This document shows positions 13,120 through 63,244 of a stretch of 64,000 bases of DNA, in pieces. The notes beneath the pieces are model-generated. The model made no database searches. It saw only the letters and a program-made list of their open reading frames with translations, and had not been told where the DNA came from. The translations under genes and the position numbers were made by a program. Position 1 is the stretch's first letter. Each line of letters opens with the position of its first letter. The stretch covers positions 7,148,501 to 7,212,500 of the forward strand of contig JAZARR010000197.1 of NCBI GenBank assembly GCA_037389465.1. Direction: 5' to 3'. Source of the stretch: Baylisascaris procyonis (lineage: Eukaryota > Nematoda > Chromadorea > Rhabditida > Ascarididae).

Positions 13120-13931
13120 CCGGCGGAAAGGAAATAAGAAAAAACGAAAAGGAAGACAAAAAAAAGAAAAAAAAAGAAAAGTAAAGGATTTAGAGTTCCC
13201 GAGAGAGAAGATTAGTGAGGTTGGATAATTCGACACAGCCGTTAATCTGTGGTTTTAGAGAGTTTATGAGGTGGGCTTCCCTTATCTTGCGGATTAGCGT
13301 GCCTTTGCCACGAGCAAGTATTTCGACCACAATGTTAGTTGCCTCAAGGTTGTGGACCTCGGCAACATGCTTGGCCATTGGGCATGCAGCATATGATCGA
13401 GATAGTGGTGATGACATGCTTAACACGTGCTCTCTAATGCGCTCATGCAGGAAGCGGCCCGTTTCACCAATATACAAAGAATCGCATGCGCAACAACGAA
13501 TAGAGTAGACAACATCTTTCATGCAACAGTCCCCTAGATTATTAGTGGGACAAATAACACATTTAGATGGGTTGTAGCATAGGCGATCATATAGTCGGTT
13601 GCGGACTAGAATTTGTCGGAGTGTGGGAGGGGGTGACATTTAGTTTAAGAAGGAGTTGGTGCTTACTGAGAAGGAGGGAAAATTCGTCAGTAAAACTGTC
13701 GCATACGTAGGGAATGGAAAGGGAAACTTGGGCATTACGTTCATGTTCACTACGACGTCTACGATGTCGAAGAGAGGGGTTGTCGAGATGTTGTTGTGTG
13801 TAGTTGGATGAGAAGTTAAGATGGTAACCGTTAGTGGCAAGAATGGATTGGGCGCGGTGAAGAGAAGTTTCCATGCTGTCGTGGTCGGTATTGAGGCTGG
13901 CAGCATGGACCGTTTTTATGAGATGGGAGAC

Positions 13932-19600: not shown

Positions 19601-22600
19601 TTCTCTGTTTTGCTAGAGACAGCTCCCATTCAGCATCATAGTGAGTCTATAGGAAGCCGAAACCACTTCCAGCGTACCGTAATAACTGAGCCACTGAATG
19701 AAAGAATCATTGAAAGCGTTAAAAGCCTTAACGATTTGGCATTTATTAGACATACCTTTGAGACTGTAGATCCTGGCAAAGCCGGAAGTTTATTGAAGGA
19801 AAAATCTGGTATTCCAAAAATTCTCGAATTCATTCTGTTGTTGCCTTCAGAAATTTAGTGTTTTACGCAGCTACCTCCCGAATTCAGCTTCATCTTTCCG
19901 AATTTAGTACCCTCTGCGCATCTTTAATTTCATGAATATGAAAGTTCTAGAACAGGTACTACGAGGATGGAAGGCTTAGAAGGTGTTTATGCTCTTAGCA
20001 GCATGAAGCATAGTTAATAACCTGTCTCATCAGTCAATCATTCAGCCTTTCAGGTTAATTGAAACGTTACGATTTGGAATTTTTTTTCAATTTTCAGTAC
20101 TTGTTATTTTTTTCCAAGTTAGCCTCTAATATATTTTCGTCACTTTGCAGTTACTTCAATCTCTCAACTTATTTCAACCTTTTAATCCCACAATAATATA
20201 CCGGTTTATGATTTATGCGCGATTGAAGTTTATATTTTCTCTACAAAAAGGATGTTTTCATTTGACATTTGGACAACATAATCAGTCGTTTTACTTTACT
20301 TACTTAATATTTATGGGCAGCTGATCAAATGGTTGCATCAAAAAAAGTTGTGCCCATAATATCATTTATTGCAGTCACTTCTTTCGTTCTGTTGCATCAA
20401 AAAAAGTTGTGCCCATAATATCATTTATTGCAGTCACTTCTTTCGTTCTATCTATGGGATAAAAATAATTTGAGGGTTTCAAAACTTTTATATAATTCGA
20501 TAAATTAAATTCGCAAGAGTACAATATAGTAAAATTTAATAGTAAAGGAATTTTAACGTATAAAAACGAGAATCTTCTTGCATTATTCAATTTTCAATGA
20601 GTGTTTATGTATCCATTTTGAGTCTATAATCTTATCTATTACATTACTTTTAGTTGCTCATCATCATAAATGAAGGAGGTTTTGAATATGTTTTTCGTTA
20701 GTGAGTTACTTTCTTATAGGTGAATTTCTTGTGCATCAGCCTAGAAACGTTTTGTTGGGGAAAAATGGCTTAGAATATGAATCATTGCTGCAATTTTCTT
20801 TATGGATCCGATGGCAAAAGAATAGGTTAATGAAACAATTATAGCACGCCTCTTTCCCCCTCCCCTCCCAATCGCCTCCCCATCTCCACCTCCACCTCCT
20901 CCAATGACAAGAAACTCATGAAATATGACAATGAAACGGTAGTGAGTACATAGTGCGTTCTAGCAATTGTATTTGTTGAGCATTGCTTAGCGTATACAAA
21001 ATACATATTGAGTTTATTGTAGGCTAAGTTTATGAATGGATGAATGAGAAAGGGAAACTATGTAAAAAAAAGTTTGTAAAAGAAATGCACAACTTTTTAT
21101 TTATTTTACTTGAAAGCCTTCTTTATTCGTGAAAAAAAAAACATGTGTCGCTGCAATCATTCCATCCATCTTTCAATCTTTGTTGCAACATGACAGAGAG
21201 GAAGAGAGAGGAGAAAGGGAAGAAAAGAGAGATGGAGAGAGAGGGAGATGGAGGAGAACAAAAAGGAGGGAGAGGAGGACAAAGAAGTGATGAAAAGAGA
21301 AGAGAAATTATTGGAAAGTCAAATTTAAGCTATGATACAGTCAAAGAACATTTGAGGAGTGAAGCGTGTAGAATAGATTTTCGGTGACATGTTAACTGTT
21401 CCTAGTTTATTTTTAGCTTTCTTTACTTGTATTTCTCAATGAAAGAAGTTTGATTGGTTTTATATAAGAAATGCTAAGTGTTCTTTGAGTAAAAAAATGA
21501 GATCGTTTACATTCCAAAAATCAGCTGTATATTTTGAGCCTCGGGTTTAAGATTATAGCGTTATTTAAATAACTAATGATTATTTATTTCATTATCACTA
21601 TTAATAGTGAAGCGACTAGTTACTTTATCAGTTAATTTATCACTATTATTAATGATAAAACAGTTGTTTACTTACTAATTACTCTAAGGAGTTGCCACAA
21701 CAAGTTACAATGCTATAAAAATTCAGGTTCATGGTTTACCTACATTTTTTTTTACCACTTAGCGGTCCAGCTGATAACCAATTGAGCGACCACTTAAATT
21801 AATTGCAATTAAATATACGATTGAATTTGCAGGAACGTTTGATCTTCAAAAATAAATGCACAACGCCGTTACTGTGTTTGACTGGTCAAGAACTTATGTA
21901 AACAACTTTCTTATTAAATGAATGCTAAATAAGTTTTGTGTGGTTGTTCCTATTACTGTATTTGAGTGGTCAAGAACTTATGTAAACAACTTTCTTATTA
22001 AATGAATGCTAAATAAGTTTTGTGTGGTTGTTCCTATTACTGTATTTGAGTGGTCAAGAACTTATGTAAACAACTTTCTTATTAAATGAATGCTAAATAA
22101 GTTTTGTGTGGTTATTCCTATGCGCAGACATTGATGTATACAACAACATCCTACCACATATTTGTTGCTTCGTATCTTGTATCTATCTTTCTATCTGTCT
22201 GTCTGTCTGTTTGTGTCTGTTGGCCAGTTATTTAAATACTCAACTAGCAATGAATCATTCAAATTGTTTTCATTTAAGTTGCCAACCTGTTGTGCATAGG
22301 TGGCAAAGCTTCAGCAAACGATCGTTCATCTAATCATTGGGCCAAAAAACATATTTCTTTTATATTTGCTAAGGTGAGAATCGAGCTTCGCTTTATTCAG
22401 TTGTATATCATTTTTGATGAATGCCCATCGGGCAATAATTGTTTTTTTGTTTGTCGATATGTTTGTGTTTTCATTAGCAAATCATTTGCACATAATTTTC
22501 CATTGAAACGATTTGGGTTTTTCACGTTGTTACCATGACAACCAAATTTGCATATTTGAATATTTTAACCAACCATTTTAACTAACACATTACAGCAGGA

Positions 22601-33400: not shown

Positions 33401-36400
33401 AAAATGTTCTTTGTAATAATTCTGAAAAGAAGCGTCATAGTGAAACACTACATGATGAATGAAGCTAATTTTCTTACGAGTCACATGAAATTTCAAAATG
33501 AAGTATGTGACATTTTGCCAATGATGTATAGCCACCTCTATGCAGTCAGCCTGTTTGATACTCTTTTATCTTCTCATTTCTATCAATGAGAAAATAGGAA
33601 GACTGCAATTTGCAATGGGAAATGGATATAGCTAGTTTCGACTTCTCATCGTCTATTCCTTCCCTCTTCTTTTCATCCCTACCGTACAGTTTTTTTTTCT
33701 ACAATATATCTAACAATTAAACTAATAAAATATAATGCATTAGTATAATTGTCTATCAAACCTAACGATTCCCTTAAATTCTCTCAGAAAGTGTAAATAT
33801 TTCATTCCAATTTTTTCACTCTTGTTTTTATGAATCAAGAATTGTTCATTAAATAAACTATTCTATTTGAGGATACTATGAGTGTAAGCGATCGTAAATG
33901 GTTTCTCGATATGTTCGTTCGGATAACAAATCTCGCACAGAATTCCTCTACAACGAGCAACAATGACAACTCGAATTCGATAAACACTTTAGCACGGAGA
34001 ATGTGCGCTTACAATTTTCCGGTGAGTTTTTGAAGCTTTTTTTTAATAATTTTATAATATTTAAAATACCATCCTAATATTAATATCAACCTTTTTTGAA
34101 ATTCTTAGAGGGTCTTCCTTCAGTCTTACTAGAATTAGAGAAAGGGAAAGGAGGGACAAACTTTACAAATTTTTAAAAAATTTTAATGAAAGAAAGCGTA
34201 CCTCTCTCTTTGGATGGTGGTAGTTTTTAATAGATCCAGTTTCCTTTTATTAGAATATTTTTGGCCTTGTTGAACGGGTTATTTTCACTTGAAAATTTCG
34301 TTCTCCTTGCTAAATGAAACTGCTCCGTGATAGCCTGAAAGTAGCTATAAAAAATTAGGCTTGGCTGCAAATTCTTACCATTTTTAAACCATTTTTCCTC
34401 TCCAGCAGTTTTTATAATAATATTGTCTTTTCATAAAAACTCAACAACATAATAAGTAGTAATGTTTTGGTTAATAGTTGCACTTCAGTATGTCTTAGAT
34501 TCACGCATGACTCACAATTAAGATTTATATACATTCTCGATTGCAGTCTTCAAGAACCTATGATTCAACCCAATAGATTTCAATCGATCTGGATGTTGTC
34601 CGATGATGAAAACTCACGTCCGGCGACATTGAGTTTCCTATTGCTTTTAAACAATTTCGCAATTCTTTCTGTAATATTCTGACGAAGTTATATGTGAATT
34701 TTTTGAATATACAAAGGTAGAAAAGATAAAAAATGTACTGCATTCTAAATGAAGCTAGCTTATTGTTGCCCAAGCTGGTGGGTAATTGCCGCAAATGAAA
34801 CGTAAACATCTATGTGGGTTTACTCGTTGATTGGCTAAACAGTCTTCGTCTTTCAGTGCATTGTATTGGTTTACGGCGAAGAGTGCTTCATTGATCGATT
34901 ATTGCCCATATTTGAGGGATTCTGCTCGGATCCGGATGAAGAAATACGCTGTGCAACCGCTGCCGGCTTTCATGAGGTTTGCAAAATATTTGAGGCTACA
35001 GAGAAAATCCTTCAAAAAAATTTTTCTACAAATCCGCATTATTTTCATACATTTTTGCATAAATATTTGTTCGGCGTAAATTTGCATATGATGGTGCTAT
35101 GCATTTATGCATTTGGTTATATGGTCTGCATGTTTGATAGTTTTATCGTGGCCATTGCTGAATTTATACCAAAAAAAGGTGATGGATATGATATATAGCA
35201 CGGAATGACCCTTCTTCATATCATATATCAAACTGTGAAAGAAGTTGTAGATATTTGAAAGGATCAAAAAAGTTTTCCTGTTACTTACATATTATGGAGA
35301 TGCAAATTCATTCAGTTTATTAAATTGTAGATATCATTATTGAACACTGAAATAATAGCTTTATTTCGTTATACTACTAACGTATATAGTTTAACGTTTA
35401 TTAAGGGAAACGGGAAGTTAAAAATTAGAAGATGAGAGGTTGAAGCGAAGATTAAACGTAAAAATGAGGTAACGGTAATATAAAAATGTTTTGAGTGTTA
35501 GCATTTGAATAGAAATCCCTATGAGCGTTTGAAAGTGAGAGAAGAGATAAGCAAATTTGATTTTTACTTGTAAATTAAAACATCTGCAGTTAAATTTGAA
35601 ACAATTTCTATCGTAATTTATCTGAATTCGTTTCGGAGCCCATTGCTTTCATTTTCTTTAGAGTCATACCTTCAGGTAAGTACCGCTTTACTTTACGGAG
35701 GGTTTGGGGGAGGGAGGGGGTGCCGACTCCCACATATAGCGTTTTGTGAATTGATGGTTACCGTCAAGTTACACTTTCATTTAGTGCGGAGCGCTCAACT
35801 TTATTACGGAGTAGGATGCGGCTAATTAACTCACCCATTAAACAGGTGTATTTTTACTGAATGCTTCAATCTTATCTTGTGTAAAATTCATATCTTCAAG
35901 TAATCGCTTTGTTGGAAAATGTTGTTGCGGTTTATAAATAATCGTTTCCTAAATGTGGTCGAGTTTTTTGATGATAGTTTTACATCTTCAATAATCGAAT
36001 CTATAGATAAACAATTTCGGAATCTTTGAACTGCGTTAATTTGCCTCAATTTGCAATAGATTTTTTTAAAAAGAGCTCCTGAGGTGTTCAATTATTTTAA
36101 AAAAATATTCTTGTCCTCGCTCTCGAGATTGGCCTGTTTAAATGAAATAAAATTTGTGATTGCAAAGAATTGGATTAATGAAGTAATTGGGATGGGTACG
36201 ACTATCGTTGTGCAAGAAAATTGCTTGCATAAAATGGAGAACGAATAGTAGCAAATTGATAGGCTTGGTAGAGGCGATAAGAAATTCTCTATGATGAAGA
36301 ATGTCAGCAATTAGTCGATGCAAACCGGAATGCGTAAAATTTACCATTAATGGAAAATTTGTTGGGATGGGTGCGGCCATGCTGGGATCTTTCAATGCAT

Positions 36401-42600: not shown

Positions 42601-44433
42601 AACACCTAGTAAGTTTTATTAGATCACAACTCAGGTGTAGAACTATCAGCAATAGGTTAATGTGGTAGAAAAATAAACAGGCGTTTTTCTTTTCGACATA
42701 TGGTTTAATTCCTTTTTCCATTAGAATGATTTTATTAACGAACTGAATGTGAGTAGACTCATTGCAAACTTTTGACTTCAAGCAATTTTGCTCTTGGATT
42801 TGAATGACTTACCTGCAGTTGCCTGCAGAAATTTCAAGAACGATTCCTTTAACTCTTCGGTATTATTAGACCTTGAAAAACATGAATACAAGTGAAGTGA
42901 AACCTCAGTTTGGCCTCAGTATGATCTCAGTTAAAACCACGAGTATTTATAGATTTCGCAAAAAGTTTCAATAATTTCGTAGAAATGGTAGTAGTCGAGA
43001 ATCGAGATCCATTTTCATGCCTTCTCTATAGTAACCACTTATGATGTATTGGCTGAAAATCTCTTTCAGCATTCATCTTACTTCACTAATCAACAACCTT
43101 GTTTATTTATTCTTTATTTAGCATCAGGTAAACACATTTCACGCGCAGCAGCAGCACTCGCTAATCGTGCCACAGCAACACCTGAGAAGAGCAGATCTAC
43201 CGAGAAGAGTAAGTTACGTCCTCCATCTGCTCAAAATAACGCACTGACGGGACAAATTAATGCCAAGCCACCACCACCCTCTCATGCACGCCTTCCTACA
43301 AATCGACCAACTCGTTAGTTTTTTGATTGTTTAGTGCTTATTTGATTACTTTGCTGCTTTACTACTTTTTAGAAAGTTTCTAGGTCTAAAAATTCGATTC
43401 TTTTCCCTTTCTTTATTAATATTTAGTATCGAAGAAAAGCTCACGGGGATGCTCTTCCCCGATGTTTTTACGTTTTTTGGAGAAAGCGGAAGTTCGACAA
43501 AAAATATACGTATGCGAAGTGCCACCAAGAAGTTCCCTAAAACTAAAAATCACTTTCAGTGCGCCACTATACATCGCTTTCAGCACCTTTAAGGAGTCAG
43601 TATGGCGCTCGTCGTTGTTCTGGGAGTACGTCTGCATCTACAGTGTATGTTACTGTGAGATTAAGTCTATGAGGTTTCACGATCGCTGGAATGATGACTA
43701 ACTTGAAGAAACGAAAAGTCTCTATGAGATTTTGTTTCAAACTTTATAAGACGGCCGCTGAAATGTGCACAAAACGCACGAGTGTTTGAAGGGTTTTAAA
43801 AATAGCAGAACATCTATTCGAGATGACGAGAGTTCTGGGCGTCCTTCAGTTGGCATCAACAACGAAAATGTTGCTATCGTTTGTGAACGAACTCATGAAA
43901 ACCGTCCTCCAACAATCCACATACCTGTGAAACTGCAACGGTATCGCATGGGATTTATTATGAGGCTTTATCAAAAAGACATAGAATGCGCAACATTGCA
44001 GCGAAAGTTGTGTCTCATGTGTAGACGAATGATCAGAAGCAACATTGTGATCAGATCTATTGAATGCTCAAAAAACACTCAGAAAATGCCTCAGACTTTA
44101 TCTTGTGCATCATTATTGGTGATGGAAAAAAGTGGGTTGTCGGGCACGACCTACAAACTCAACAACCATTACTGTAGAAAAAATCAAGGGGACCAAAGAA
44201 AGTGCACTAAGTTCGAAGCAGATGATTTGCTTTTCTCGATATCGAAGGCATAATTCCTAAAGAAAGGAATTTTTTACGCCCGGCCAGATAGTAAATGGAG
44301 AATTCTATAGTAATGTCTTGAGGCGACTTCCGGAAAGAGTTCGTCAAAAACGTCCAGTTAAGCGTATTTCATTGCAATAATGCCCCGGGAAAAACGCATT
44401 CAATGTGCTTCAATTTTTGGCCTTTAAGAAAGG

Positions 44434-48283: not shown

Positions 48284-48361
48284 TTAGGATTTCTTTGAAT
48301 CGGGTGGAAACGAATGCCGAATAATTGTATTCTCAACACCATTACTCGGTAATATTGTCAT
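48284..48361 (-). CDS. Gene 2 exon 18 (stop)
   Basis: Acceptor TTTGCAG, phase 0. It encodes the last 25 residues, including ENTIIRHSFPPDSKKS, then TAA at 48286-48284. Confidence 0.7.
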   Translation of the reverse strand: MTILPSNGVENTIIRHSFPPDSKKS

Positions 48362-51300
48362 CTGCAAATGTGAAAATGAGAGAGAAAATTTTTATCGATT
48401 TATTCATTCAAAAAGTTTTCATGAAATAAGTTTAATATTTTGATATATTATAGGTTGTGAGTGAAATATTTTGATAATTTAATGATCTAATAGAAATAAG
48501 ATGAGCAATCAACATTTTATTTCAATGGATAGACATTTGCAATCGGTACGCTTTATTCTCGATTAACAAATTCTTCATAGGCAACAGGATTTTCACTTAT
48601 TATGGCCATTGATCAAATACAAAACATTCTTAGATAAATTTCTGATGGAATTAAAATTCATTCAAAAATGAATGCAATAAGCTGCATTGAGCATATTGGT
48701 AAATATCGTGGAGTTTAAAGAGATATAACGTGATATCTCTGAGTTTGCAAAGAAACGTTTGTGATGGATGAAACTTTTTGAGATAGAATAAGAGGGGAAA
48801 ACTTTCCTATCTATTTCCTCGCTGAGGAAATTTTTTGAAAATTTTGAGAACTTCAAAAAGATTTCCGCAAATTTATGGCACGAATAAGCGAAAAACCATC
48901 ATGGAACGAATGAAACTTGCGCATTTTAGAGAAGATTTAGGAATAATTAACTATTTAACGAGAATTTCTCGTACCTCTAGTGACTATCTCTTGAAAATAC
49001 TAATTGAAATCGACTCCCACAAAAATTGTTGAAATTTGGCGATGCGCCAAATGTGATATTGTTCAACATGTAAACGTAGTTGTTGCAACGCAGCAATCAA
49101 AAATCAAGTGAGTTGAAGAGCCACACAATCGCCTGCTTTAGAAGAAGCGCATAAGATAATTGAGTGCTATTATGAAGAACTAAATAAGTCATCATCTTAT
49201 TTCACTTTGATTTCAATCTTTCAATTTTGCCGCAATCTTTCTCCGTTTATTTAAATCGAGATTGAATAGTGGAGTTGTAGCCAAAAAAATACTTAAATAC
49301 CAATAACTCGTTCTTTTCTTTTTTTTTGGATTCGCCTCATTTTTTTTTTGTACTATTCTAGCAACTCATTAACACACTAGTATAACAATCACTCTATACC
49401 TTTTTTGTTGGATGAATTAAATGTAGAATCGGCTGATTGATAAAATTGTCCAATATTTGATTACTCGTAGTTGTTCCAAAATTATTAAGAAGACGTGATC
49501 GTTGAAGACAACGATGATTATTGATGGAAAGTTGTGATGTTAGAGTTAATATTTCACTCTCATTTTCGGCATCTGAAGTCTGCTCACGACATCTGAAAAT
49601 TTATAATTAATAATCATATTCTCATCAATTACTATTTACAAATTTGAAATTAAGACTCGATGTTTGATCACAGAAAAGATCTCTTCATCATCTCTCTATT
49701 CGAGAAATAAAAATAGAATAGTATTTCTAATTTTTGAAACATAACAGAAAATTAGAGGTGAAAACATTATAACTAAGGTAGAGCTATTGCAGGTAACATA
49801 AAATTACTCAAAATAAACCTAAAGAAATATGGGCAACATGGACGTAATTGTGCACATGCGAATTGTAATAAATTGACATCCGAATAACACTCTCGAGGAT
49901 CTGTATAGTTGCCCGATGAGAGTCTTTCAACGTATTGCCGATCATCATTGTTCAATTTTTGTGAGCATTTATCATCCTGCAATGATGAAAATTTTTGGTT
50001 TTTTTCTTCCTTTTCTAATGAAACTTTTTTCATTTTCGTAAAAAATTTTTCAGATGACCTTTTTCCGAGATGCTAACATGAAAATAGCTAATAATCACAA
50101 TATATGAATCACTGAGATAAAACGCATATATATTTTAAAGGAAAAAACGGAAAAGAATTGTTTTTTTATCTCTCTTCCATTTGAAGATTTCCCGATTCTT
50201 TAAAAAAAACAAATCCTCGTTTATTCATATTCCTACAAGGTGATGGGTGGCATTCGAAACAATGTCACTCTTGAAATAATACGCTTCAATTCGTGCATTT
50301 AGAAATTGTTAACTTTTAAGAAAAAAAAATGGCAGCGATAAAAGAAATATATTCGTCTCAAATTCCCCTTAAGATACGTTTTAAAAAATTTCTCTCGTTT
50401 CATAAAATATCTTTTAACAATTCATAATGAACCGAAGGAGAAATTAAAAATAACATGGGATGCAGGCTATGACTGTCAAATTTCATCACTCTTCCTTCAG
50501 TGGTCTGAGAGATAGACAAACAGATATTTATAAGTTTTACTCATTTAGAAAGTATTGCAAAACGCATTCAGTATTCACTATTGCGTATAATTATGTATTC
50601 GAATTATTAGAAGAAAAGCTTTTCACTTTGTAATTTTTAAAACATCAATAATAAAAAAAGAGATATTTCGTGCAAAATTTCTGAATAAAAGGGAAATTTG
50701 AGAACAATTGAATAAATTTAAGGAAAATTTTGAGAAAAAAAATTTAACGGAAAATTCAAGGAAAATCACTAAATAGAGGAGAAAATCGATATATTTGCAT
50801 CAACGTGACGAGGAGTAACATGAATTTTTAGAAGACAAATTATGTCTTCGACTCATTTTTCGATTTATCTAATTTTGTTCATTTGTTCAGTTTAGAAAAA
50901 AGTAATTTTTCGACTCAATAATGAGAAATTCCGATGTCTATCAAATGAATTGGATAACTGCATTCAAATATTATAATTTTTAAGCTCTTATTACTCATGC
51001 ACCCTCGACATATATAAAATGTGCATTTTTTGCTTCAAAAATGCTCACCAATCATCTAGAGAGTTCAATATGATTGGCACAAAAAGGACAATGATATTTT
51101 CTTATATCACTTGACATATACTTATATTTATTTATATTTTTACTTATTTTTTACTTGTATATTACTTAAAACACATTGCAATTATTCTATAAAAGTGATC
51201 AAAAGTATTTCTTAGGAAAAATCGATATGCAAATAAAAATTTTCAAAAAAGAGAAACTAACATGAATAAGATCCGATTCGTTGAGACATTTTCGAAGTCG

Positions 51301-54300
51301 TTTATTACGAAGAATTACCAATTCATAGAGTCTATTAAATGCATCATAACCTTCACCATTGCAATGATCACCAATTTCGAGTAACGATTCAGTTGATAGT
51401 GCAAATGGTGATTGTTGCTCATAACGTCCCGATACAACAATACATGTATCCAATGCACGTACCACCTAAATCCATACATATATATTAACATCTATAGTTG
51501 GAAGTACGAAACTAATATCTAAGATAGAAAGTAAAACAAGTAGAGAATTGATAATTCACTGATTCTGCAACAATTTGCAAATTATTGTCATTATTATTCA
51601 CTTAAATTTGAAATGCATATATAAATTTTAGAGAAAAGAGACCAAAATTCAATAAAAAGAAGACCACATCTAGTTATGATGATTATTTATTTCAGAGAAA
51701 CGGGACTTGAATTCAGGTGAAAAATAAAGGGAAGATTTAGCCCGAAATAATGATTTTCATAAGTATAAATCCTTAGCGTCAAACAAAACACTTCACTCAG
51801 TACTATCAACAATGAAAAGATTTGAAAAAAAAAACACCACTAACTTTACGGTGTAGATTCAATTAAAACCTCTTTAGAATTTAAACTTGTGCCTTCAAGG
51901 GGTTTCTATTACGGTTAAATGATTTGGCCGATATTCATTAACACCTAAATTAATCGGATATATTTTTTACAATGTTGCCAATAACGTCCTCACTATTTCT
52001 CACCTGTGAGATGCGTCTATATATGGGCAATCCTCATTGAACTATCATCCCCTGATTAGCTCAAATTCGTGGAACAACTCATAAACTGTGGTAGATAAAG
52101 GAAGTAAATGCAATGAGAGCAACTGTTTTTTGCAAGTTCATCATATTATAGAAGCTCTTCAAGTGATAAGTTTGTGATATCCAGCAGTGAGAGAAGGAGG
52201 AACAGGCCGTTCCTGACAACCGTATAAAATGATGAAGCTTGAATGAACATAGATATGAACTTGAATGAATATAGGATATCAAGGCGTTTTTAATTTTCAT
52301 TCGCTATGCAGTTTTCTTCACTAACTCAACCGAAATAACGTACACCTCAAAAATCCGGAATCTCCCCCACATACTTCTAATTATTTATCTACTCATCAAT
52401 AAAAATTTAAAGATCACGATAAAAAATGAGGAATAATGTTACCTGATGACGACAACGAAGATATAAATCGCATGGCGTTAAATTCCTTTCCTCCTAAATT
52501 GAAAGATTTTTAAGAAACTAATTACTCTTATAAAACCATTTTCACTTAAGCAATTTTTGTGTAGATAAATATTGGCAATGATATCATTTCTAATTCATTA
52601 TAAAAGAACTGGCTCCCTATGATGGTCAAGCAGCTCAAAAAGCGAACACTACAGTTTCGTAGTTTCTGGATTTGGTCATGCCTTTTACTGGAAAAAGGAA
52701 ATAAACATCCAATCGATAGCAAGCATTAGTAGAATGTGAAATTTTCGTACCATTGTTGCAAAAAGATGATTTCGATTTTTACGTTGTCGATAAAGTTCGA
52801 TTTGCTTTCTATATTCGTCGTTCTCCCATTTCATCTCTATATTCTCTTTCGAGTTACGTTCACCCACTTTCATTAGCATATTTCCTCCATCGGAATCTTT
52901 CCAAATTTCAATCACAGGTACCGCTGAAAAAAAAAATGCAAATAAATAAAATTTATTCGTTGGTAAAATATCAAAAAAAATATAAATAAAATTCCAAAAA
53001 AAAATGTGAAATTTTTCTTTCTAATAGCAATGTGATATCTGTATCGACAGTAATATGATGGAATAAATTTTCCTTAGAAATTTTTCTAAATGTGCTGATC
53101 AGTAAGAAATGAAAAAAGACTCGAAATGAACTAAGTGTTGAATTTTTTTTTTTCAAGAATACTAGCTAAATTAATTATAAATAAGCGCATAAATTAACTT
53201 AACACGAATCAAGTATCATTTTTTGTTCAATAAGATTGGCTTACATTAATTCTTAGCAGCTATTCGCTCCTTAATGTACCGTATCGAACTTAAATACAAC
53301 CTTTAATAAGATCGCAGAAAATTCTTTCATATATTGAGTCGTCAAGAAATTATTAGTTGTGAGATATTTTAAAATACGTAAAATACCCTTGAATTAAAAT
53401 GGATATATTCCGTAAAAAGTAATGTGGTTTGTGGATACTAGACAATTTATTTGCTACTTCCGGTCGAGATCATAAACAAATGATTTCCTGAAACATCATC
53501 TTCGATTTAAATTATATTCGGTCTAAAGGTTTGAATCTAAATTCTTTTTTTCATCCTATGAATATTTTATACTCTAAATGCTCATAATTTGAAAAATAAA
53601 ATTTTTAAGAATACAATTTTCTTCGAATGAATCCTCGAGATGAGCACTCGTTTTAGATGATGATTCCAATGGATCGGCTATTGTATTCGCTATTTTTGCA
53701 TCATCTTCTGGATAGTCACCTTCATCAAATGCTGAAATATTTGAAAGCAAGTGAAAATATGGTTATAAATGCCATAAATATAAAAAAATATTTAATCAAG
53801 AATGTTTAATTGATAGCTAAGAAAACATTATAAAAAATAAAATCGAACATTACAATTATTCTTTCAAAACTCCTATGAAAATGAGCGACACTTTATTTGC
53901 CTCAATCATACGACTAGAAAATATGTAAGCGGCAGAAGATTATTGACCATCAATTCATTTTACAGTGCTCATATTAGAAGATATGGGCGTGTTTATATAC
54001 AAAACCTGTTCTAAGAAATATTGTGCGAATGAGAGTTTAGAGAATGAGGGAATCAACAAAAATCTCGAGATTTATATACCTTTCATCCTATCAAACACGA
54101 TTGCTAATTAAAGTATCATTTTTCGTAGCTATTTCAAATGAACAATGGAGTCTTTCGAAAACGCAAAAGAAAACATGTGGGAAAGCACGCCAAAATATTC
54201 GGCACGACATGTGCTTTTGCAATTTATTAATCAGTTTTTTAGAACTCCGATGAAATGATGAAGAAATGCGCAATGCAGAACGAATTGCTTTCCAATCTAA

Positions 54301-57300
54301 GTGATCATTAAATGTGACTCTAATGGTGTGTGCAAACTATGCGACACCTCTGAATGCGTTAAACTCATTTGAGGATTTGCATTAATTTGAATAGTGGGTA
54401 GGCAATCCCTTTAAATGGACATTCTACCCACCAAATTTTGTAGTTCTAATTTCGGTGGTTGTCTGTTAAACATTAAAAGACATACAGGCAAGCAAACATA
54501 CATATACATGCACACAGACATGATGCCGCTATAGTTCATTTTTTGAAAATTAGCAGCATTGTGGGAAGCGAAAAATTTTAAAAAGAGAGATGGGAGAATA
54601 TGCGATTATACAAATATGTGAGAAAAACAATGAAAAAAATTATGGATAAAAGCGGAGGTCGATAGAATCATTCCGATTCGTAACTCAATCTGTAAACCTT
54701 TAGAATCGACCATGCTCAGAAAAAGTTGTAAAAATTTCAAAACATTAAAAAGAGAACTAAGCGCTTAATCGAAAAACAAACAGAATGGACTAAGAATTAT
54801 TTTTTGAAATGAACTCACATGTTGAGTTGAGAATAAATAAGGGATTATTCTTTGGATCGAATTGTTCGAGAATACCGGTGATATTAACATGCACTGGAAC
54901 GGTCGCTTTTTTGAATTCTTCACGCAATTCAGCAATCATTTTGTTGTACCTATAAAACATATGACCATTGCACAAACACAATCTTCTTTACTGAATTTTT
55001 TGCAATATTGTACAACATATCGGAAACATTAGTCCAGTGGTTATGAACTATAGAGATAAATGTTAAGCGGACATGCAAACGCAAATAATAAAAGACTTCA
55101 AATGCTCACATACGCTCTATCTGGATACCTTTGGATACGTATTTTAACAGGAAAAATTTATATCGATGAAAGAAATTCAGGTGTTCGAAAAGCTGAAATG
55201 CCAGCTCGAGTTGGCAGCGTAAACAGGAATACAATTTTTTAGCAATGGAAGGTGTCATAAAAGGAGACGGTCTTCACAGAAGGAAGCGATAGGTTTCTGA
55301 GGATTTTAATATAAGAGTTTTAAGTTTCTTACGTTGAGTTGAAACGAGCACTTTGGAAGATGTCAAGCAATTTTCGTCTAAATTAAGAAGGAGAGAGGAA
55401 GCGGATGGAGGAACAAACGGCGGGAATGAGAAGGAGGGGAGAAGGAATGGCATTTATTTGAGTAGTACACTCAAATGCTTGAACAAATAAAAATGCAAAC
55501 CATTTAGCAAGCACTTTCTTTACTAGCTCCATATCGACACATCCGCCACCAAGTTCATTACCGGAAAGCTGCGATTGTCGAGTCGTATTTCGCCATCGAC
55601 CTCCATCAGATCCATCTTCGACGTGGTCTTTTTTGTTCTAAAAAACTTTCAACTCAAAATTTCTACTCTTTTCATCATTCATCAAGAAGAATTCGAATAA
55701 ATTTTCTTTTCTGCTCATAATTCATAGTTCCATTACTCTGAAACTGCCGGTAGGCAAAGATATGTGCATTGAACATCAAACATCACATATTATCCATCCT
55801 CACTCTCTATTGAATGTAAGACAAATCGCTATCAACCACTTTTAAAGTCGATAGGGGCGCCTTCCTATCTTCAAAGTGAATTGGAAGAATTGGAAGTGAA
55901 AGAATTAATGATTAATAGAATGAAAATATCAGTGCCATCAATTTAATATATTCTTACATTCTCCATAACTCAGCGCATAAGCTTACGAGCCTTTCCAACT
56001 ATTCCGGAAGACCTTCACATTAGTTATTCACAAAAAAAAACCAACATTTGGCAACGTGGAAAATGAGCTAAATTTGACAAGGAAGAAGTAAAGAGCAAAT
56101 ACTCGACGACAGAAAAATTCGATGATATATCCCAAATAAACAATGGCAATGGCATTTCTCATTCTCTTATTTAGTGGGTAAAAAGAGAGAGAAAAGTAGA
56201 TGATAATGGCCATAATCGATAGTGAACAAGTAGTGGAAAAGATGAAAAGTTTCAGAAATCAGAAAGGAAAATCCCCCAATATTGCAAAAATTTTCGATGT
56301 TTTTTCCGATTTGAAATAAAAGCATCGCTATGGCCTATCACATATGAGTCTCTAAAATAAGATCATCTCAGCAATGAAATAAAGCCGCACTTCTAGATTC
56401 AATCACGCGATATAGGAATTAATCCATGATATCTTGCCAAATAATGCGTCGCATGATTTTCCGGAAATTTTTGGCGAAAGAAGTATATATCAAGGCAATA
56501 TGAATCCTTAAAGAATTCCGCATCTTTTACTAATATAATGGCACTTATCAATGAATTTCTTCTTTTCCTGCGTTCTTTGAGCTTCCCATGAAGGACTACA
56601 CTCATGCCTCCGCTTCCCCTTTCTCATCCATACAACAATGATTTGAACTAACCGTTGTTTCAGAGGAATGTTCATCGGCTTCGTCTGATCCAGGGGAATT
56701 GATCCCATTAACTTTTGATGATGCCTGAAATGAAAGGATTTTTTAGAAGGTTCGATGCCGAAATCGACCTCTGCAAATTCCCTCTCTCCTATATAACAAA
56801 GTTCAGGGGAAGGAGATCATATACAGTGGTATCTTAAATGATAATCTGCCTCAATGGCCCATTCATCACCGAGTAACTCGAAAAATAATGGATCGAAAAA
56901 AAAATGAATCGAAAAAAAAAACTTACCAAAGAAGCGGCGACAAGTGAAAGGATCGCCTTATCCACATCAGAATCATTTACTGCACTTTTGCCGGCATTAC
57001 CGTTAAAATGAATGCTTAATCCGAGTTCTGGTCCTCCTTTTCCTGAAAAAAAAAAATCTCCCTAAATTTAAAATAAGTGCATCCAGAAGAAGAAACTTAT
57101 AATAGAAGAACAAATATCAAAGTTTCGAAGCTGCTATAGAAGAAGCAATGATACTATCGTTGAGAAATTCTGCAGAAAAAAAAAAAAAAAAATCGCATAT
57201 GGAAGGATAGAAATTAGAACGGTTCCAAATGTGTTCAATAATGGGATCGGTAAGCTTCCAAACGCTGTAAGCATTGAGATTTCCACAGAGACAATTTAAG

Positions 57301-60300
57301 CAATTTCAAACGAAATTATATAATCGCTGCTACAAACAGATTTTTCAACCGCAATAATGAAATTGAGAAATTCATAATGTAATTTCTCGACGATTTTAAA
57401 GTGAAATTGGTTTTATATGCGATAGACTCGAGTGGAATAAAATTGGGATTGAAGAATAAAATAAATTCAATGAGAAAAAAATTGAGTGTAATAAAATTCA
57501 TTCTATGAAATAAGTGGAATAAACGAAGAAAAGCAGAATAGACGGATGAAACTAATTTTAAGTGGAATTTTTTTCACTTGAATTCCCACTGAAAATTCCA
57601 ATTTGCAAAATTTCTCATATGAAAATATTGAATTGATATGCACTTATACGAACGAATATCATTTTGGCATAACGTGTTATGCATGTGTAAATTTGTAAAA
57701 TATACGAAAAGAGGAAATCAAGTTTTTTTTTATCTTTTGAAATAAATCAATAAATTTAATTACCTGATTCGAATGTGTCTGTCTCAATGAGTGCATCGCT
57801 CTTCTCAATTGCGGATGTACTTTTTGCCGATTCGTTTCCCTTCAAAATGCAGCAATTAAATAAAGTTGCCTTTCATGAATTTTTTTCGATGGAATAAATC
57901 GTCGTCAGTGAACTTTTTATGAACTCTTTGACCTCAGGTTTAACTCGGGCTATCGGTGGCCTCAGGTTCACGTTATCGGTGAGTGCAACTCAACTTTAAT
58001 GCATTCATCTCAAGTTTTTTTATGTGGTATACACAACACCGATGATGAACTTTCCGATCCATAAATATCAGAGCTTTCTAAATAGCACAAGAACGGTTAT
58101 CAACGATAGCAGGTGCGTTTTATGCTCCTTGATACCAATTTAGTGAAAATATTTTGTTATTATTTAAAGTGAATTCTTCTGGCCTTATCATCCTCGTTTA
58201 ATGTATCGCCGATTTGAATAGCGCCGTATCGTAGCAAAAAAAAAAACCGAAATTCAAAATTTTCTTTAAAAATGCGTTAAGGAGACGGCACGCCTTTGCG
58301 TATGTAAATATTCACATATTTTTCTGCCCAATTATCCGACGATTCCAACTGAGCAATCGCAAAAGCTACGGCAGTGACATTTGATGAGAGTACTCAATAC
58401 CCGAGAAAGGTGCTCACCTACCTCTAGCTTCGTGCCGACTGATCATATTCTAAAAAATTATTGATAACTAAACATCGAATAAACGTCGCATATCAGTGTT
58501 GTTATATAGATGGTTGTGTGAAGAAAAGTCAGTTATGGTTGAGAATTTTTGTGATCAAAGTGTTTTGGCGGAGAACGAAATATTAGACGCCCACTACTGA
58601 TTATAAATATTTTGCAGTCAACTGGCATGACGAGTTGAAATACAAAACACGCATATTGCACTACTTGATGCGCTTTTTCCTCGTATTCTTCATCCCCAAA
58701 TAATTCAATAGTAAAACTTCAATAGGTTAATAGCGCAATATCTCTAAGTGTGTCCTTCAAGACAAGCAATTGTCATGAAATTATCTGTAATGAATTGTAC
58801 TTCTCGAATTTCATCGTTTTGCATTCCTGCTGCGATCAATGAACTGCCAGGCAGAGAAAAGAAACATACATGCAACAGCTCATACGTATGCAGAGATAAG
58901 ATGCTTTCGTAAGCTGCTTTTTTGCATAAATTTGCTGACAATACATGGAACGATAGCTTGGGAATTATTCTGATTTCGAGTTTATTCGTAGAGACTGCCA
59001 AACGCTATGTGTCGCAGGGCAAAATTTGCATCGTTATGTTCAACTGTAAATTCTAGAAACAAAGAGAAACATATTCCCGCTTAGACTAACCGGATTGCCC
59101 TTATTCAGGGAATTTTTCTTTAGGTCAATCCGCTCTGATTTTTGTTTATTGGCGTTAGCCGAACTGCCCCGTGCATTCGCTCGTCGCGCATTAGCAAGCT
59201 CATCCGCTAGCACAAGCTGTTCCACAGGTAATCCCATCTATAAATTTGAATAATGAATAAACGAGAAACCAAATGAAAAACCGTTTCATTTATGCTTAAT
59301 AGTGGTATAGTAAGTGCACATATAAGAGCGCAAGCAATGGAAGAGAAAAAAGGAAGTAGGAAAAACGATCAATGAGACAGCAATAGTAACATTGAGAGAG
59401 TGTTGTTTTATTCAGCATAAGTTAATGAAATTAGCATCGCAATAACTAAATACTAAAAAACATTAAAAATAAAATAGAGAAAAGAATAACCTCGCAATCC
59501 TTCGCTTTTTTCCAGATCGCTTGTAATCGTTTCATTTTTTCGTCATTTAGAAATGACTGCCGCATAATATCAGAACACCTGAAATTGAAGTACTTACATG
59601 AAAAGCTGGGAAATAATTGAGGTAAGAAGGTAAAACGTTGGATGCTTCTCGGATTTTTTCGGACAGTAGCAGAGAGGTGAAAAAGATAAAAAGGAGAAGA
59701 AGAAGTGAAAATGCAGAACGTTAGGGGCGTACAAAAATACCTAAAGCGTATGGACGAGCCACTCAGAAAACTTGTGCACATATGTCCTGACAGGATTCGA
59801 TCTCATAATTACATAACGATCCATAAGGAATATCACGATAGTCTCACTCAACTACAGTTTTCGTGCAAATATATTCCTTTTGATACTGTACCTTTATGTT
59901 TTTTTAAAACTAATTCCGACAAAATGAAAATAATTCTGGGTAAAAGTATCGTACGTCTTATGCGCAGTACAACAACGACGAAGACCGCCACATTGGCGTT
60001 CGATACGTGCCGCCGTTCCTTGGAAGCAGTTATCCACTATGAGTTCGCCACTTGCATTACGCAGCTCACTTACAGCTGTCAATAGTGACGAATCGCATTT
60101 GGTTCTCTGCAATCATTTCAGTACTACTGTAGATCACCTGACCAATATGTACCGTATCGCTACAAGATGTGTCGGGAGAAGATTAAAGAGTCCTCATTCT
60201 AAAAAAAAATGTTACGATATCTGAAAAACGAGATGGGGAGAGGGGAGGGAGAGGGGTTGCGGTCCAACCCAGAATCTGCTTTGATGATGGTGTATTCTAT

Positions 60301-63068
60301 TCTTAGAAATTTTCTCAAATCCAAAAACCCTAAATCATCAGTATAAAATAAAAGAGGAGAATATTTATATCGATGTCTCTAAAATTTATTCGAGATATGC
60401 TGTCAAATTGCTCCTTAATATCTCTTACAACTATTTAGTAGACTATTTGTTCAGTGCATTTGTAACACAAGTAAACATGAAAACATATGTGAAGCGCATA
60501 AAGAGAAGGACATGTCAGAAAAATAAAGACGTATTCGTTATCTAACATTATCCTATGCTTGTTAATTTATTTCTTTTCCGAAATAGATGGATTAGAGATA
60601 AAAGCACATAGTAAACATTCCATACAAAAGTATTCATTTGCCAATATCCTGTTTTCGATAATCTACGCGAAGAAATTCAAAAAATTTCCCTCTAATTAAT
60701 ATCTTTCTTCAATTAGCTCATTAATATTAAAAATTCAACGTTCACTTCAATATGAGACGATCAACACAAAAGGACGATATATTCAATCTACATAACGAAT
60801 GAGAACAGCCCTTGTGGCGTTGATCTTTCAAGTAGTATAGAAACGATGAGGGAAACTCGACCACGATTGGAATGATGCAATGTTTTTCGTTGAAATATAT
60901 GAGCATTCATTATTCAATTTATGAAAGTTTCATAAAGAAAATATAATCCGTCTATGATCAATGACCCGTATTAGCAAATATGATCGATATTCGTCTCTTT
61001 AGACTTTCCTTTACATTCCGATTTCAGGTACAATCTGTAAATTTTCCCTATTCCTGCCCTTCTTCCCTTTTTCTTTATATCGTTTATATCGCATTAGATC
61101 GTCTCATATTAAAAAAAAAAAATCAAGTTCCTCTATTTCCAGGAAAAACCCTACATAGTCGTTACAATGAACACTGAAATTGTACCCTCATGAAATTTTA
61201 GTCGCACTTTTATTCGACAAATGGTCGCAGTAAAATATATTCCATAACAAGAGAAGCATGATCACTACTTCATAATTTGCTGTACTTCCATTAAGTGTTT
61301 ATTTGCCCATATTACCTATAAGTAATAGTCCGATATTAGCTCCAGATACTTTCCTATTTTTGAAATTTTTACTCTCTAATTCTTACCCAAATGGGTACAT
61401 GCAATATTGTGACATGAACGTACTTTTTTCAAAGAGTAGAAAAAAAAATTGATTCATAGGAATTAAGTGATAATCGTATCAAAGAAAAAACCTGTTCTTC
61501 TCCAAGTGGTAGTGTTTGCTCAATATAACAAGATAACATTTGACTTTCTAATTGTCTTTCGATTCGTTCCAACTGCAAAAAAAAAAAATCCACTGATTAA
61601 TTATTGATTGATTTTGGAATAAGAATTTTAGAATGCTGCCCATTTTTATTAATATCTATTTTTTCCTTTCATCTTTTTTATTGGCTGTAAAGGTGAGAAA
61701 TGAGAAATTCAAAGTGAGAAAACTTTCAACGTTTTTACTATTTCATTCACAGAATACTAAAATGTTGTAGTAGTCTCATAAATATGTTGAAATGAAATCA
61801 CATTTTCATTAAAAAAATAAATGAAAAAATTCACACAGCAATAATACGTCAGAAAATTTTCAAATTCCATTTTTATTCTATTTTCCAGTTGAAAATATTC
61901 GTAAATTTTACGAAAGAAAATTTTTAAATAGAGATTGTTTCATGTAAATTAGAGATGACAACGTAAGCAATGAATGAGGTTTTTTTTTTTTTTCATATAA
62001 CGCTGATGTTGAACATTATGAAAGTGTATTTAATAATTTCCTTTCCTCTTTGCAATGTTAGATGGATTGAATAACCCTTGGGCATCAACTTTTCCCTCTC
62101 ATTTCCCGGCTCCCTCTAGTCGCTTCCTCTTCGCATATTCGAATCCATCGAGAAAAAAACTTCCACTACTATATTTTAACCGGAAAAATAAATGCATACA
62201 AAGAATTGATATCAAAGAATAGCTTAAAAATAAAAAATTTAAAATAATAAACCATAATATAGTCATTTCGTAAAAGGTGATAACACTTTTGTTTTTGTTG
62301 ATTCGATGATGGCAACCAATATGGCATCAAGATCGTATTTCCAGTGCAGATTCGTTCTTGCATACGTGATGAGCTCTCACATTCGACCAGATGCTCGCAA
62401 TACGACACCGATTCTTCCTAAATTTTTGTGATATCAATATAAATTCGCTAATCATTTATCGCTATTCTAGGCTATTTCTTAGGTACTGTAGACGTTACGT
62501 GGAGTACTGTAAGCAGTACCGTATCAGTGTTGAAGTAAAATATCAAAAATTATATGTGATCAAATAAAATTGAAATTATATGTGATAGTCGGAAGAGAAC
62601 TGCTAATTCGATTGCTACATTCGTCATGCATCAATGTCAGGTCAGCTGTTTTTTTTTACACCTGAATCGCAAACACCTACTGATTAAGAACTGTCACTGT
62701 GTGTATGTGAAGTACTTATGTGTGTCTGCGGCCTAACCATTTGCACACTGAATTAGTATTTATCCCCTTAGATTGCTAATGCACTTACAACCTTAACCAA
62801 ATTTGCATTTATAATATTTCTAAACGACTACCACGCCAAGTCTAGAGGTTTGACGTTGTGCATGTTTGCGTATACCAGCCAGTGAACGTTTAATTATTGT
62901 GCTGCTCATTTAAACTGCAATCACACTATTAGCATTTCATATTGTTACCGGTTAAATCAGTGTATATAAAAAATTTTTTAAAATTTATTTCGAATATTTG
63001 TTATCAACAATTGTTTCAAATGAATCTAAGCAAGTAAAGGAAATTTTCACAGAATCTAAACAAACAAA

Positions 63069-63113
<45 letters not shown>

Positions 63114-63244
63114 AATTTTTAAAAAGTAAATAAAGTATTAAAAGGTTATTTTCAACTAACCAGCAACGATGACGATGAAGGCACAGGAAAGTGATACAAT
63201 AAAAGTACGGCCAATAAGCACCATAAAGGATTATTCAAAGCCAT
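48284..63244 (-). CDS. Secreted protein with two 12-cysteine domains, 18 exons
   Basis: Exons in reading order: 63161-63244, 62253-62417, 61492-61572, 59955-60106, 59491-59578, 59091-59237, 57764-57839, 56927-57042, 56653-56724, 55501-55637, 54819-54949, 53615-53731, 52751-52923, 52443-52493, 51262-51465, 49819-49976, 49400-49592, 48284-48361. They sum to 2223 bases, 741 codons with TAA, all phases matching. Residues 1-28 are a signal peptide. A first 12-cysteine domain spans 35-189 and a second 521-679, with near-identical spacing (C-x5-C-x10-C, C-x24-C, C-x5-CC-x5-C-x26-C). The linker is acidic and Ser/Asn-rich with a helical part at about 360-390. At least ten N-x-S/T sequons suggest glycosylation. 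I do not recognise the family. The nematode DUF19-type cysteine domain is one candidate to test. It probably acts outside the cell. Confidence 0.8.
49400..49592 (-). CDS. Gene 2 exon 17
   Basis: Acceptor ATTTTCAG, donor GTATAG. It carries cysteines 11 and 12 of the second domain (CREQ and HRCLQ). The reading enters in phase 2 and ends in phase 0. Confidence 0.8.
49819..49976 (-). CDS. Gene 2 exon 16
   Basis: Acceptor ATTGCAG, donor GTTTAT. It encodes DDKCSQKLNNDDRQY and CYSDVNLLQFACAQLRPCC with sequon NYT. It ends in phase 2. Confidence 0.85.
49977..51261 (-). other. Gene 2 intron 15 (1.3 kb)
   Basis: AT-rich with poly-A and poly-T runs. No other feature recognised. Confidence 0.6.
51262..51465 (-). 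CDS. Gene 2 exon 15
   Basis: Acceptor GATTTAG, donor GTTAGT. It encodes VVRALDTCIVVSGRY and YDAFNRLYELVILRNKRLRK with cysteines 3-5 of the second domain and sequon NES. It ends in phase 0. Confidence 0.88.
51466..52442 (-). other. Gene 2 intron 14 (1.0 kb)
   Basis: AT-rich, with no feature recognised. Small open frames such as 52079-52300 are not supported. Confidence 0.6.
52443..52493 (-). CDS. Gene 2 exon 14 (51 bases)
   Basis: Acceptor AATTTAG, donor GTAACA. It encodes EERNLTPCDLYLRCRHQ, cysteines 1 and 2 of the second domain with sequon NLT. Phase 0 at both ends. Confidence 0.82.
52751..52923 (-). CDS. Gene 2 exon 13
   Basis: Acceptor TTTTTTTTCAG, donor GTACGA. It encodes VPVIEIWKDSDGGNMLMK and a charged helix (EYRKQIELYRQRKNRN). 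It enters in phase 1 and ends in phase 0. Confidence 0.85.
53615..53731 (-). CDS. Gene 2 exon 12, donor uncertain
   Basis: Acceptor TATTTCAG. It encodes FDEGDYPEDDAKIANTIADP and a Ser-rich end. Two phase-1 donors fit exon 13: GTATTC (exon end 53615) or GTGCTC (exon end 53648). The protein is 740 or 729 residues accordingly. Confidence 0.7.
53732..54818 (-). other. Gene 2 intron 11 (1.1 kb)
   Basis: AT-rich, with no exon or repeat of note. Frames at 54044-54273 on both strands are unsupported. Confidence 0.6.
54819..54949 (-). CDS. Gene 2 exon 11
   Basis: Acceptor TTTTATAG, donor GTGAGT. It encodes YNKMIAELREEFKKATVPVH with sequons NIT and NST. It is readable only in this frame. It enters in phase 2 and ends in phase 1. 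Confidence 0.87.
55501..55637 (-). CDS. Gene 2 exon 10
   Basis: Acceptor TTTTTTAG, donor GTTTGC (weak). It encodes DHVEDGSDGGRWRNTTRQSQ and CVDMELVKKVLAKW. The helix continues smoothly into exon 11, which supports the donor. It ends in phase 2. Confidence 0.8.
55638..56652 (-). other. Gene 2 intron 9 (1.0 kb)
   Basis: No feature recognised beyond short unsupported open frames. Confidence 0.6.
56653..56724 (-). CDS. Gene 2 exon 9
   Basis: Acceptor CATTTCAG, donor GTTAGT. It encodes ASSKVNGINSPGSDEADEHS, part of the acidic Ser-rich linker. Phase 0 at both ends. Confidence 0.82.
56927..57042 (-). CDS. Gene 2 exon 8
   Basis: Acceptor TTTTTCAG, donor GTAAGT. It encodes GGPELGLSIHFNGNAGKSAV and DKAILSLVAASL with sequon NDS. 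It enters in phase 1 and ends in phase 0. Confidence 0.85.
57764..57839 (-). CDS. Gene 2 exon 7
   Basis: Acceptor CATTTTGAAG (weak), donor GTAATT. It encodes GNESAKSTSAIEKSDALIET. It ends in phase 1. Confidence 0.72.
57840..59090 (-). other. Gene 2 intron 6 (1.25 kb)
   Basis: No exon recognised. A frame at 58744-59001 on the - strand has no acceptor in a fitting phase. Confidence 0.55.
59091..59237 (-). CDS. Gene 2 exon 6
   Basis: Acceptor ATTTATAG, donor GTTAGT. It encodes LPVEQLVLADELANARRANA, an Ala/Arg-rich helix, then a Lys/Asn-rich end. Phase 0 at both ends. Confidence 0.85.
59491..59578 (-). CDS. Gene 2 exon 5
   Basis: Acceptor AATTTCAG, donor GTTATT. It encodes CSDIMRQSFLNDEKMKRLQA ending KDCE, cysteines 11 and 12 of the first domain. 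It is open only when entered in phase 2. Confidence 0.87.
59955..60106 (-). CDS. Gene 2 exon 4
   Basis: Acceptor GATTGCAG, donor GTACGA. It encodes SELRNASGELIVDNCFQGTA and CGGLRRCC with sequon NAS. It alone restores the phase between exons 3 and 5. It ends in phase 2. Confidence 0.85.
60107..61491 (-). other. Gene 2 intron 3 (1.4 kb)
   Basis: No exon or repeat of note. Confidence 0.6.
61492..61572 (-). CDS. Gene 2 exon 3
   Basis: Acceptor TTTTTTGCAG, donor GTTTTT. It encodes LERIERQLESQMLSCYIEQT then LPLGEEQ. The other two frames contain stops. Phase 0 at both ends. Confidence 0.87.
62253..62417 (-). CDS. Gene 2 exon 2
   Basis: Acceptor AAATTTAG, donor GTTTAT (weak). It encodes SYCEHLVECESSSRMQERIC, an insert of 20 residues, then CYHLLRNDYIM. 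Phase 0 at both ends. Confidence 0.8.
62418..63160 (-). other. Gene 2 intron 1 (0.74 kb)
   Basis: Contains the (TA)n array at 63079-63110. Nothing else recognised. Confidence 0.7.
63079..63110. repeat. (TA)n microsatellite
   Basis: Short TA array about 50 bases after the exon 1 donor of gene 2. Confidence 0.95.
63161..63244 (-). CDS. Gene 2 exon 1, signal peptide
   Basis: ATG at 63244-63242. It encodes MALNNPLWCLLAVLLLYHFP then VPSSSSLL: a short polar start, a hydrophobic core and a small-residue end, as in a secretory signal peptide. Donor GTTAGT, phase 0. Confidence 0.85.

What the first reader, a model, noticed from the sequence alone, without database searches (positions are those of the whole stretch)
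48284..63244. Secreted protein built from two copies of a 12-cysteine domain, duplicated with its introns
Residues 35-189 and 521-679 each hold 12 cysteines in the same order. Spacings are 5/5, 10/10, 20/26, 24/24, 15/11, 22/25, 11/10, 5/5, CC, 5/5 and 26/26. Two introns sit at the same place and phase in both copies: phase 0 three residues before cysteine 6 (RTK-C and DDK-C), and phase 2 in the residue just before cysteine 11. Little else is conserved, so the duplication is old and the disulphide frame is kept. I do not recognise the family.
Basis: partly seen in the sequence, partly recalled or inferred. Interest (0 to 1): 0.8.

Follow-up and report, generated by a model that had tools for sequence, protein, structure and literature searches.

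The report
Duplicated 12-cysteine nematode secreted domain
A roundworm gene makes a secreted protein with two ancient copies of the same twelve-cysteine module joined by a long flexible linker; the module matches no named family here, and its job is unknown but probably in the worm's own extracellular matrix or body fluid.

Summary
A Parascaris protein (81% identical) supports exons 1-17; exon 18 is unsupported. Three Steinernema proteins share the two-copy layout (44% and 42% identical in copy 2 for the two), and a Panagrolaimus protein has copy 1 alone. All 12 cysteines are kept in 10 of 11 domain copies; one Steinernema model lacks a stretch.

The copies are homologous. In the window itself pairwise similarity equals shuffles, but profile comparison gives E 1.9e-5, the copies fall on two sides of one branch (100/100), and two of three in-domain introns coincide to the base (chance about 7e-5). 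A third intron sits 18 and 21 bases before cysteine 1. The duplication predates the ascarid-Steinernema split.

No Pfam family fits, although UniProt labels one homologue 'CPG4 domain'. Models are all-helical with no significant PDB match. Best reading: a soluble, two-headed extracellular protein of general nematode biology, not a parasitism factor. Function is inferred, not shown.

The parts
63161..63244 (-). exon 1: start codon and signal-peptide-like N-terminus (residues 1-28)
   Evidence: 20 of 28 residues identical in P0001; hydrophobic peak at residue 10
62253..62417 (-). exon 2: copy 1, C1-C4 (residues 29-83); phase-0 intron 18 nt before C1
   Evidence: 53 of 55 identical in P0001
61492..61572 (-). 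exon 3: copy 1, C5 (residues 84-110)
   Evidence: 27 of 27 identical in P0001
59955..60106 (-). exon 4: copy 1, C6-C10; phase-0 intron 9 nt before C6 shared with copy 2
   Evidence: 49 of 51 identical in P0001
59491..59578 (-). exon 5: copy 1, C11-C12; phase-2 intron before C11 shared with copy 2
   Evidence: 26 of 29 identical in P0001
53615..59237 (-). exons 6-12: Ser/Glu/Asn/Lys-rich linker with low predicted confidence. It holds a better conserved stretch, window residues 358-440 (exons 10-12), with the motif TSF-x4-YPEDDA-x-I
   Evidence: residues 190-357 24% identical to P0002 but the YPEDDA block 67%; 10-residue pLDDT blocks of 20-51 in P0001
52751..52923 (-). exon 13: end of linker with conserved KWENDEY block
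   Evidence: alignment of the window protein with P0001-P0003; 44 of 57 identical in P0001
52443..52493 (-). exon 14: copy 2, C1-C2; phase-0 intron 21 nt before C1
   Evidence: 15 of 17 identical in P0001
51262..51465 (-). exon 15: copy 2, C3-C5
   Evidence: 65 of 68 identical in P0001
49819..49976 (-). exon 16: copy 2, C6-C10; shared phase-0 intron 9 nt before C6
   Evidence: 47 of 53 identical in P0001
49400..49592 (-). exon 17: copy 2, C11-C12 and C-terminal tail; shared phase-2 intron before C11. If not spliced onward the frame stops after one more codon
   Evidence: 42 of 64 identical in P0001
48284..48361 (-). exon 18: proposed last exon (25 residues), unsupported by any homologue
   Evidence: splice sites only; 0 of 25 residues aligned to P0001

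Best explanation
A soluble secreted nematode protein built as a two-headed tether. Two all-helical modules, each presumably locked by six disulphides, are joined by a long flexible linker that carries N-glycosylation sites and one short conserved motif. SHOWN: the gene structure up to exon 17; two homologous 12-cysteine domains; duplication with introns before the ascarid-Steinernema split; strong conservation of the domains and of a linker motif; no match to a named family in the Pfam scans. INFERRED: disulphide pairing; extracellular location; that each head binds a partner and the pair bridges two sites in an extracellular matrix or body fluid; that the role is general nematode biology (development, matrix, eggs or cuticle) and not an attack on a host, because Steinernema and Panagrolaimus have relatives too.
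For: Gene and cysteine frame. Parascaris, three Steinernema and a Panagrolaimus homologue; 12 cysteines in 10 of 11 domain copies, the exception a gene model with a missing stretch. Copies on two sides of one branch at 100/100. Profile match of copy 1 to copy 2 over 155 columns, E 1.9e-5, probability 78%. Domains 92-95% identical to Parascaris against 62-69% in two linker stretches. P0001 model all-helical, helix order broadly alike in both halves. Ten N-x-S/T sites, six of them in residues 191-520. No hydrophobic segment after the signal. With P0002 as query, 7 of 7 matches in the window's own genome lie in this gene.
Against: No functional, expression or localisation evidence was found; a paper search for the five homologues' accessions held none. 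Copy-against-copy similarity within the window protein is no better than shuffles (34 against a mean of 34.5; 158 of 300 shuffles as high), and cross-profile scores are only 6.0-10.5 bits in the two ascarids. Copy 2 is modelled poorly (10-residue pLDDT blocks of 40-66), so superposition was not shown. The tree joins long branches (program warning). The Panagrolaimus protein has copy 1 alone, so the two-headed form may not be general. The tether role rests on architecture alone, and linker cleavage into two separate modules is not excluded.
Confidence: 0.45

Rival explanations
1. It is a chondroitin proteoglycan core, related to C. elegans CPG-4, whose globular heads hold chondroitin chains carried on the linker in egg or matrix.
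For: UniProt names the S. glaseri homologue 'CPG4 domain-containing protein'. Long linker rich in Ser, Gly and acidic residues. The SG pair at window residue 264, preceded by acidic residues, is also in Parascaris.
Against: Pfam CPG4 (PF15481) is in the library and picks up another open stretch of the same genome (31.9 bits, cut-off 32.7), yet is not listed for the window protein, P0001-P0005, separate domains or consensus domains (HMMER's filters drop most matches above E of about 0.1). The same model over the own genome matched two other places, both under the cut-off, not this gene (9 candidates scored). Neither of the two linker SG sites of the window protein (264, 352) is kept in P0002 or P0003, which have others. 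A review table lists CPG-4 only with a 'C-terminal low-complexity domain' (PMC11632948, passages seen).
Confidence: 0.15
2. The module is a ligand-binding or co-receptor-like signalling domain (as in GFR-alpha or DUF19-type proteins), and the protein is a soluble binding protein for a peptide or lipid.
For: All-helical, cysteine-rich, secreted, duplicated; such domains often bind ligands (recalled).
Against: No such family listed in the Pfam scans. No membrane anchor seen. No significant PDB fold (inconclusive).
Confidence: 0.25
3. It is a secreted product that acts on the host during parasitism.
For: The window's nearest homologue is in a parasitic ascarid and others are in insect-parasitic Steinernema (life styles recalled).
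Against: A Panagrolaimus homologue keeps copy 1 (free-living habit recalled). The domains change slowly and one locus matched in the genome with P0002, unlike expanded host-facing families (recalled).
Confidence: 0.06
4. The two cysteine-rich stretches are unrelated and the pattern is coincidence or a gene-model error.
For: Within the window protein pairwise similarity equals shuffles.
Against: Spacing, introns, profile match and independent proteins of other species.
Confidence: 0.02

Closest known systems
Uncharacterized homologues: Parascaris univalens A0A914ZPW6, Steinernema carpocapsae L596_001902, S. hermaphroditum QR680_000998, S. glaseri A0A1I8AD03, Panagrolaimus davidi A0A914QIH6
   Same: same 12-cysteine frame; two copies plus YPEDDA motif in the first four
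   Different: none came with a stated function; Panagrolaimus model is 303 aa with copy 1 only; S. hermaphroditum model lacks one cysteine of copy 2
CPG4 domain (PF15481, chondroitin proteoglycan 4)
   Same: nematode, secreted (recalled), cysteine-bearing; UniProt gives this name to one homologue
   Different: 94-position model, not listed for any member or domain scanned
DUF19 / T20D4.11-like (PF01579)
   Same: nematode cysteine-rich secreted domain (recalled)
   Different: not listed in the Pfam scans

Membership tests
CPG4 (PF15481) | score above Pfam's curated cut-off (32.7 bits) | tested here: not met
   not listed at E up to 10 for the window protein, P0001-P0005, single domains or consensus domains; the model is in the library and scores another open stretch of the genome 31.9 bits
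CPG4 (PF15481) | chondroitin chain on the core protein | not testable with these tools
   needs glycopeptide mass spectrometry; SG sites listed
DUF19 (PF01579) | match to the Pfam model | tested here: not met
   absent from the Pfam scans; own-genome search with this model did not complete
GDNF receptor domain (PF02351, accession recalled) | match to the Pfam model | tested here: not met
   absent from the Pfam scans; that the model is in the library was not checked
Any solved fold | significant structural match | tested here: inconclusive
Homologue group of A0A914ZPW6 (unnamed) | two 12-cysteine domains with YPEDDA linker motif | tested here: met

The most novel reading that the evidence does not exclude
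The module is an undescribed nematode disulphide-rich helical domain with its own fold. Its ancestor was duplicated inside one gene together with its introns before ascarids and Steinernema split, and the pair has since been held as a single-locus, two-headed extracellular protein by a constraint on a function nobody has described.
Probability: 0.35. Interest if true: 0.55.

Novelty: new variant of a known kind. Interest (0 to 1): 0.38.

Why it matters
Cysteine-rich secreted domains make up much of the unannotated part of nematode proteomes (recalled). This one is conserved between an ascarid and Steinernema, was matched at one locus in its genome, was not caught by any curated model scanned here, and carries an internal duplication marked by shared introns. 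That makes it a clean target for a new Pfam entry, for structure determination, and for a knockout in a laboratory nematode. It would not overturn anything.

Full report
GENE. Splicing the minus strand of 63244..48284 gives 18 exons with GT and AG borders at the 17 introns, 2223 nt and 740 residues. I chose the borders by reading the sequence, with the finding in hand. The cysteine positions equal those of the finding. The protein starts with a signal-like stretch (hydropathy peak at residue 10) and has no hydrophobic segment after it (highest 19-residue mean 1.13). The nearest homologue, Parascaris univalens A0A914ZPW6 (P0001), is 81% identical over 96% and aligns to each exon from 1 to 17; exon 18 has 0 of 25 residues aligned. 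Without that last splice the frame stops after one more codon. The window lies in a 272.8 Mb genome of 293 contigs at C195:7148501-7212500; an ascarid-like nematode is inferred from P0001, the species is not known.

RELATIVES. A search with copy 2 found P0001 and two Steinernema proteins, S. carpocapsae (P0002, E 6.3e-32, 44%) and S. hermaphroditum (P0003, E 1.5e-26, 42%), 3 of 383 candidates at E up to 10. A profile search with four linker-cut sequences found P0003, S. glaseri (P0004) and Panagrolaimus davidi (P0005, 303 aa, copy 1 only), 3 of 6424 candidates at E up to 10. That search did not list P0001, so it cannot speak to absence elsewhere. Of 11 domain copies (6 of copy 1, 5 of copy 2) 10 have 12 cysteines; P0003 copy 2 has 11 because a stretch around C3 is missing from its model. 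Identity of the window protein to P0001 and P0002 is 95% and 45% in copy 1, 92% and 48% in copy 2, 69% and 24% in residues 190-357, 62% and 10% in residues 441-479, and 83% and 67% in the YPEDDA block.

ARE THE COPIES HOMOLOGOUS? Pairwise, the window copies score 34 against a shuffle mean of 34.5 (158 of 300 shuffles as high), and P0001 34 (136 of 300). P0002 scores 68 (0 of 300; 3 of 300 with cysteines fixed) and P0003 100 (0 of 300; 1 of 300 with cysteines fixed). Profile against profile: 155 columns, 15% identity, probability 77.6%, E 1.9e-5. Cross searches of each copy's profile against the other give 19.1-24.7 bits in the non-ascarid rows but 6.0-10.5 bits in the two ascarids. Seven of 11 spacings are identical (order-shuffle p 6e-5; 0 of 300,000 random placements). 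Two of three in-domain introns coincide to the base (7.25e-5), and a third lies 18 nt and 21 nt before C1. In an unrooted tree of the 11 copies, copy 1 and copy 2 are the two sides of one branch at 100/100; the branch is very long and the program warns that long branches meet within copy 1. With between-species identity of 45-48% per copy against 15% between copies, the duplication precedes the ascarid-Steinernema split. The common core is C8-x2-L-R-x-C9-C10-x5-C11.

FAMILY. Pfam scans of the window protein and both halves, the five homologues, four separate domains and two consensus domains gave only weak hits below cut-off, none CPG4, DUF19 or GDNF receptor. NCBIfam gave none. UniProt's label 'CPG4 domain-containing protein' on P0004 is not upheld: the same library scores another open stretch of this genome 31.9 bits for CPG4 (just under the cut-off of 32.7), and the CPG4 model run over the whole genome matched at C291 and C292, both under the cut-off, but not here.

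FUNCTION. No paper in the library holds the five accessions. The best reading is a soluble two-headed extracellular protein: rigid heads, a long flexible linker with six of the ten N-glycosylation sites, and a conserved short motif between. Relatives in Steinernema and Panagrolaimus, slow change of the heads and a single matched locus (7 of 7 matches with P0002) argue for general nematode biology. A proteoglycan role is possible, but its best-placed SG site (264) is shared only with Parascaris among P0001-P0003.

VERDICT. Real, correctly described, old, and without a match to a named family in the libraries scanned here. A sound case for a new domain entry; mechanism unproven.

Noticed in passing
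window 13190-13639, minus strand: ORF with a weak GIY-YIG match (E 7.2e-4, just under cut-off); looks like a Penelope-type retroelement remnant (type recalled).
   Followed up: partly
window 34839-35198, plus strand: ORF with a HEAT-repeat match (E 9.7e-5, just under cut-off), probably an exon of a HEAT-repeat gene.
   Followed up: partly
window 43762-44253, plus strand: ORF that reads like a mariner-type transposase remnant (recalled resemblance; no Pfam match at E up to 0.1).
   Followed up: partly
window 21869-22121: Tandem array of three 84-bp units, 98% matching.
   Followed up: no
L008 1501-1653 (G000:C291:792396-792548) and L009 1501-1644, minus strand (G000:C292:477092-477235): Two open, cysteine-bearing stretches matching CPG4 below cut-off (30.6 and 27.4 bits; L008 31.9), other genes of the same genome; their other exons were not traced.
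   Followed up: partly
P0004 (A0A1I8AD03): UniProt name 'CPG4 domain-containing protein' is not supported by the CPG4 model of the Pfam copy used here.
   Followed up: yes
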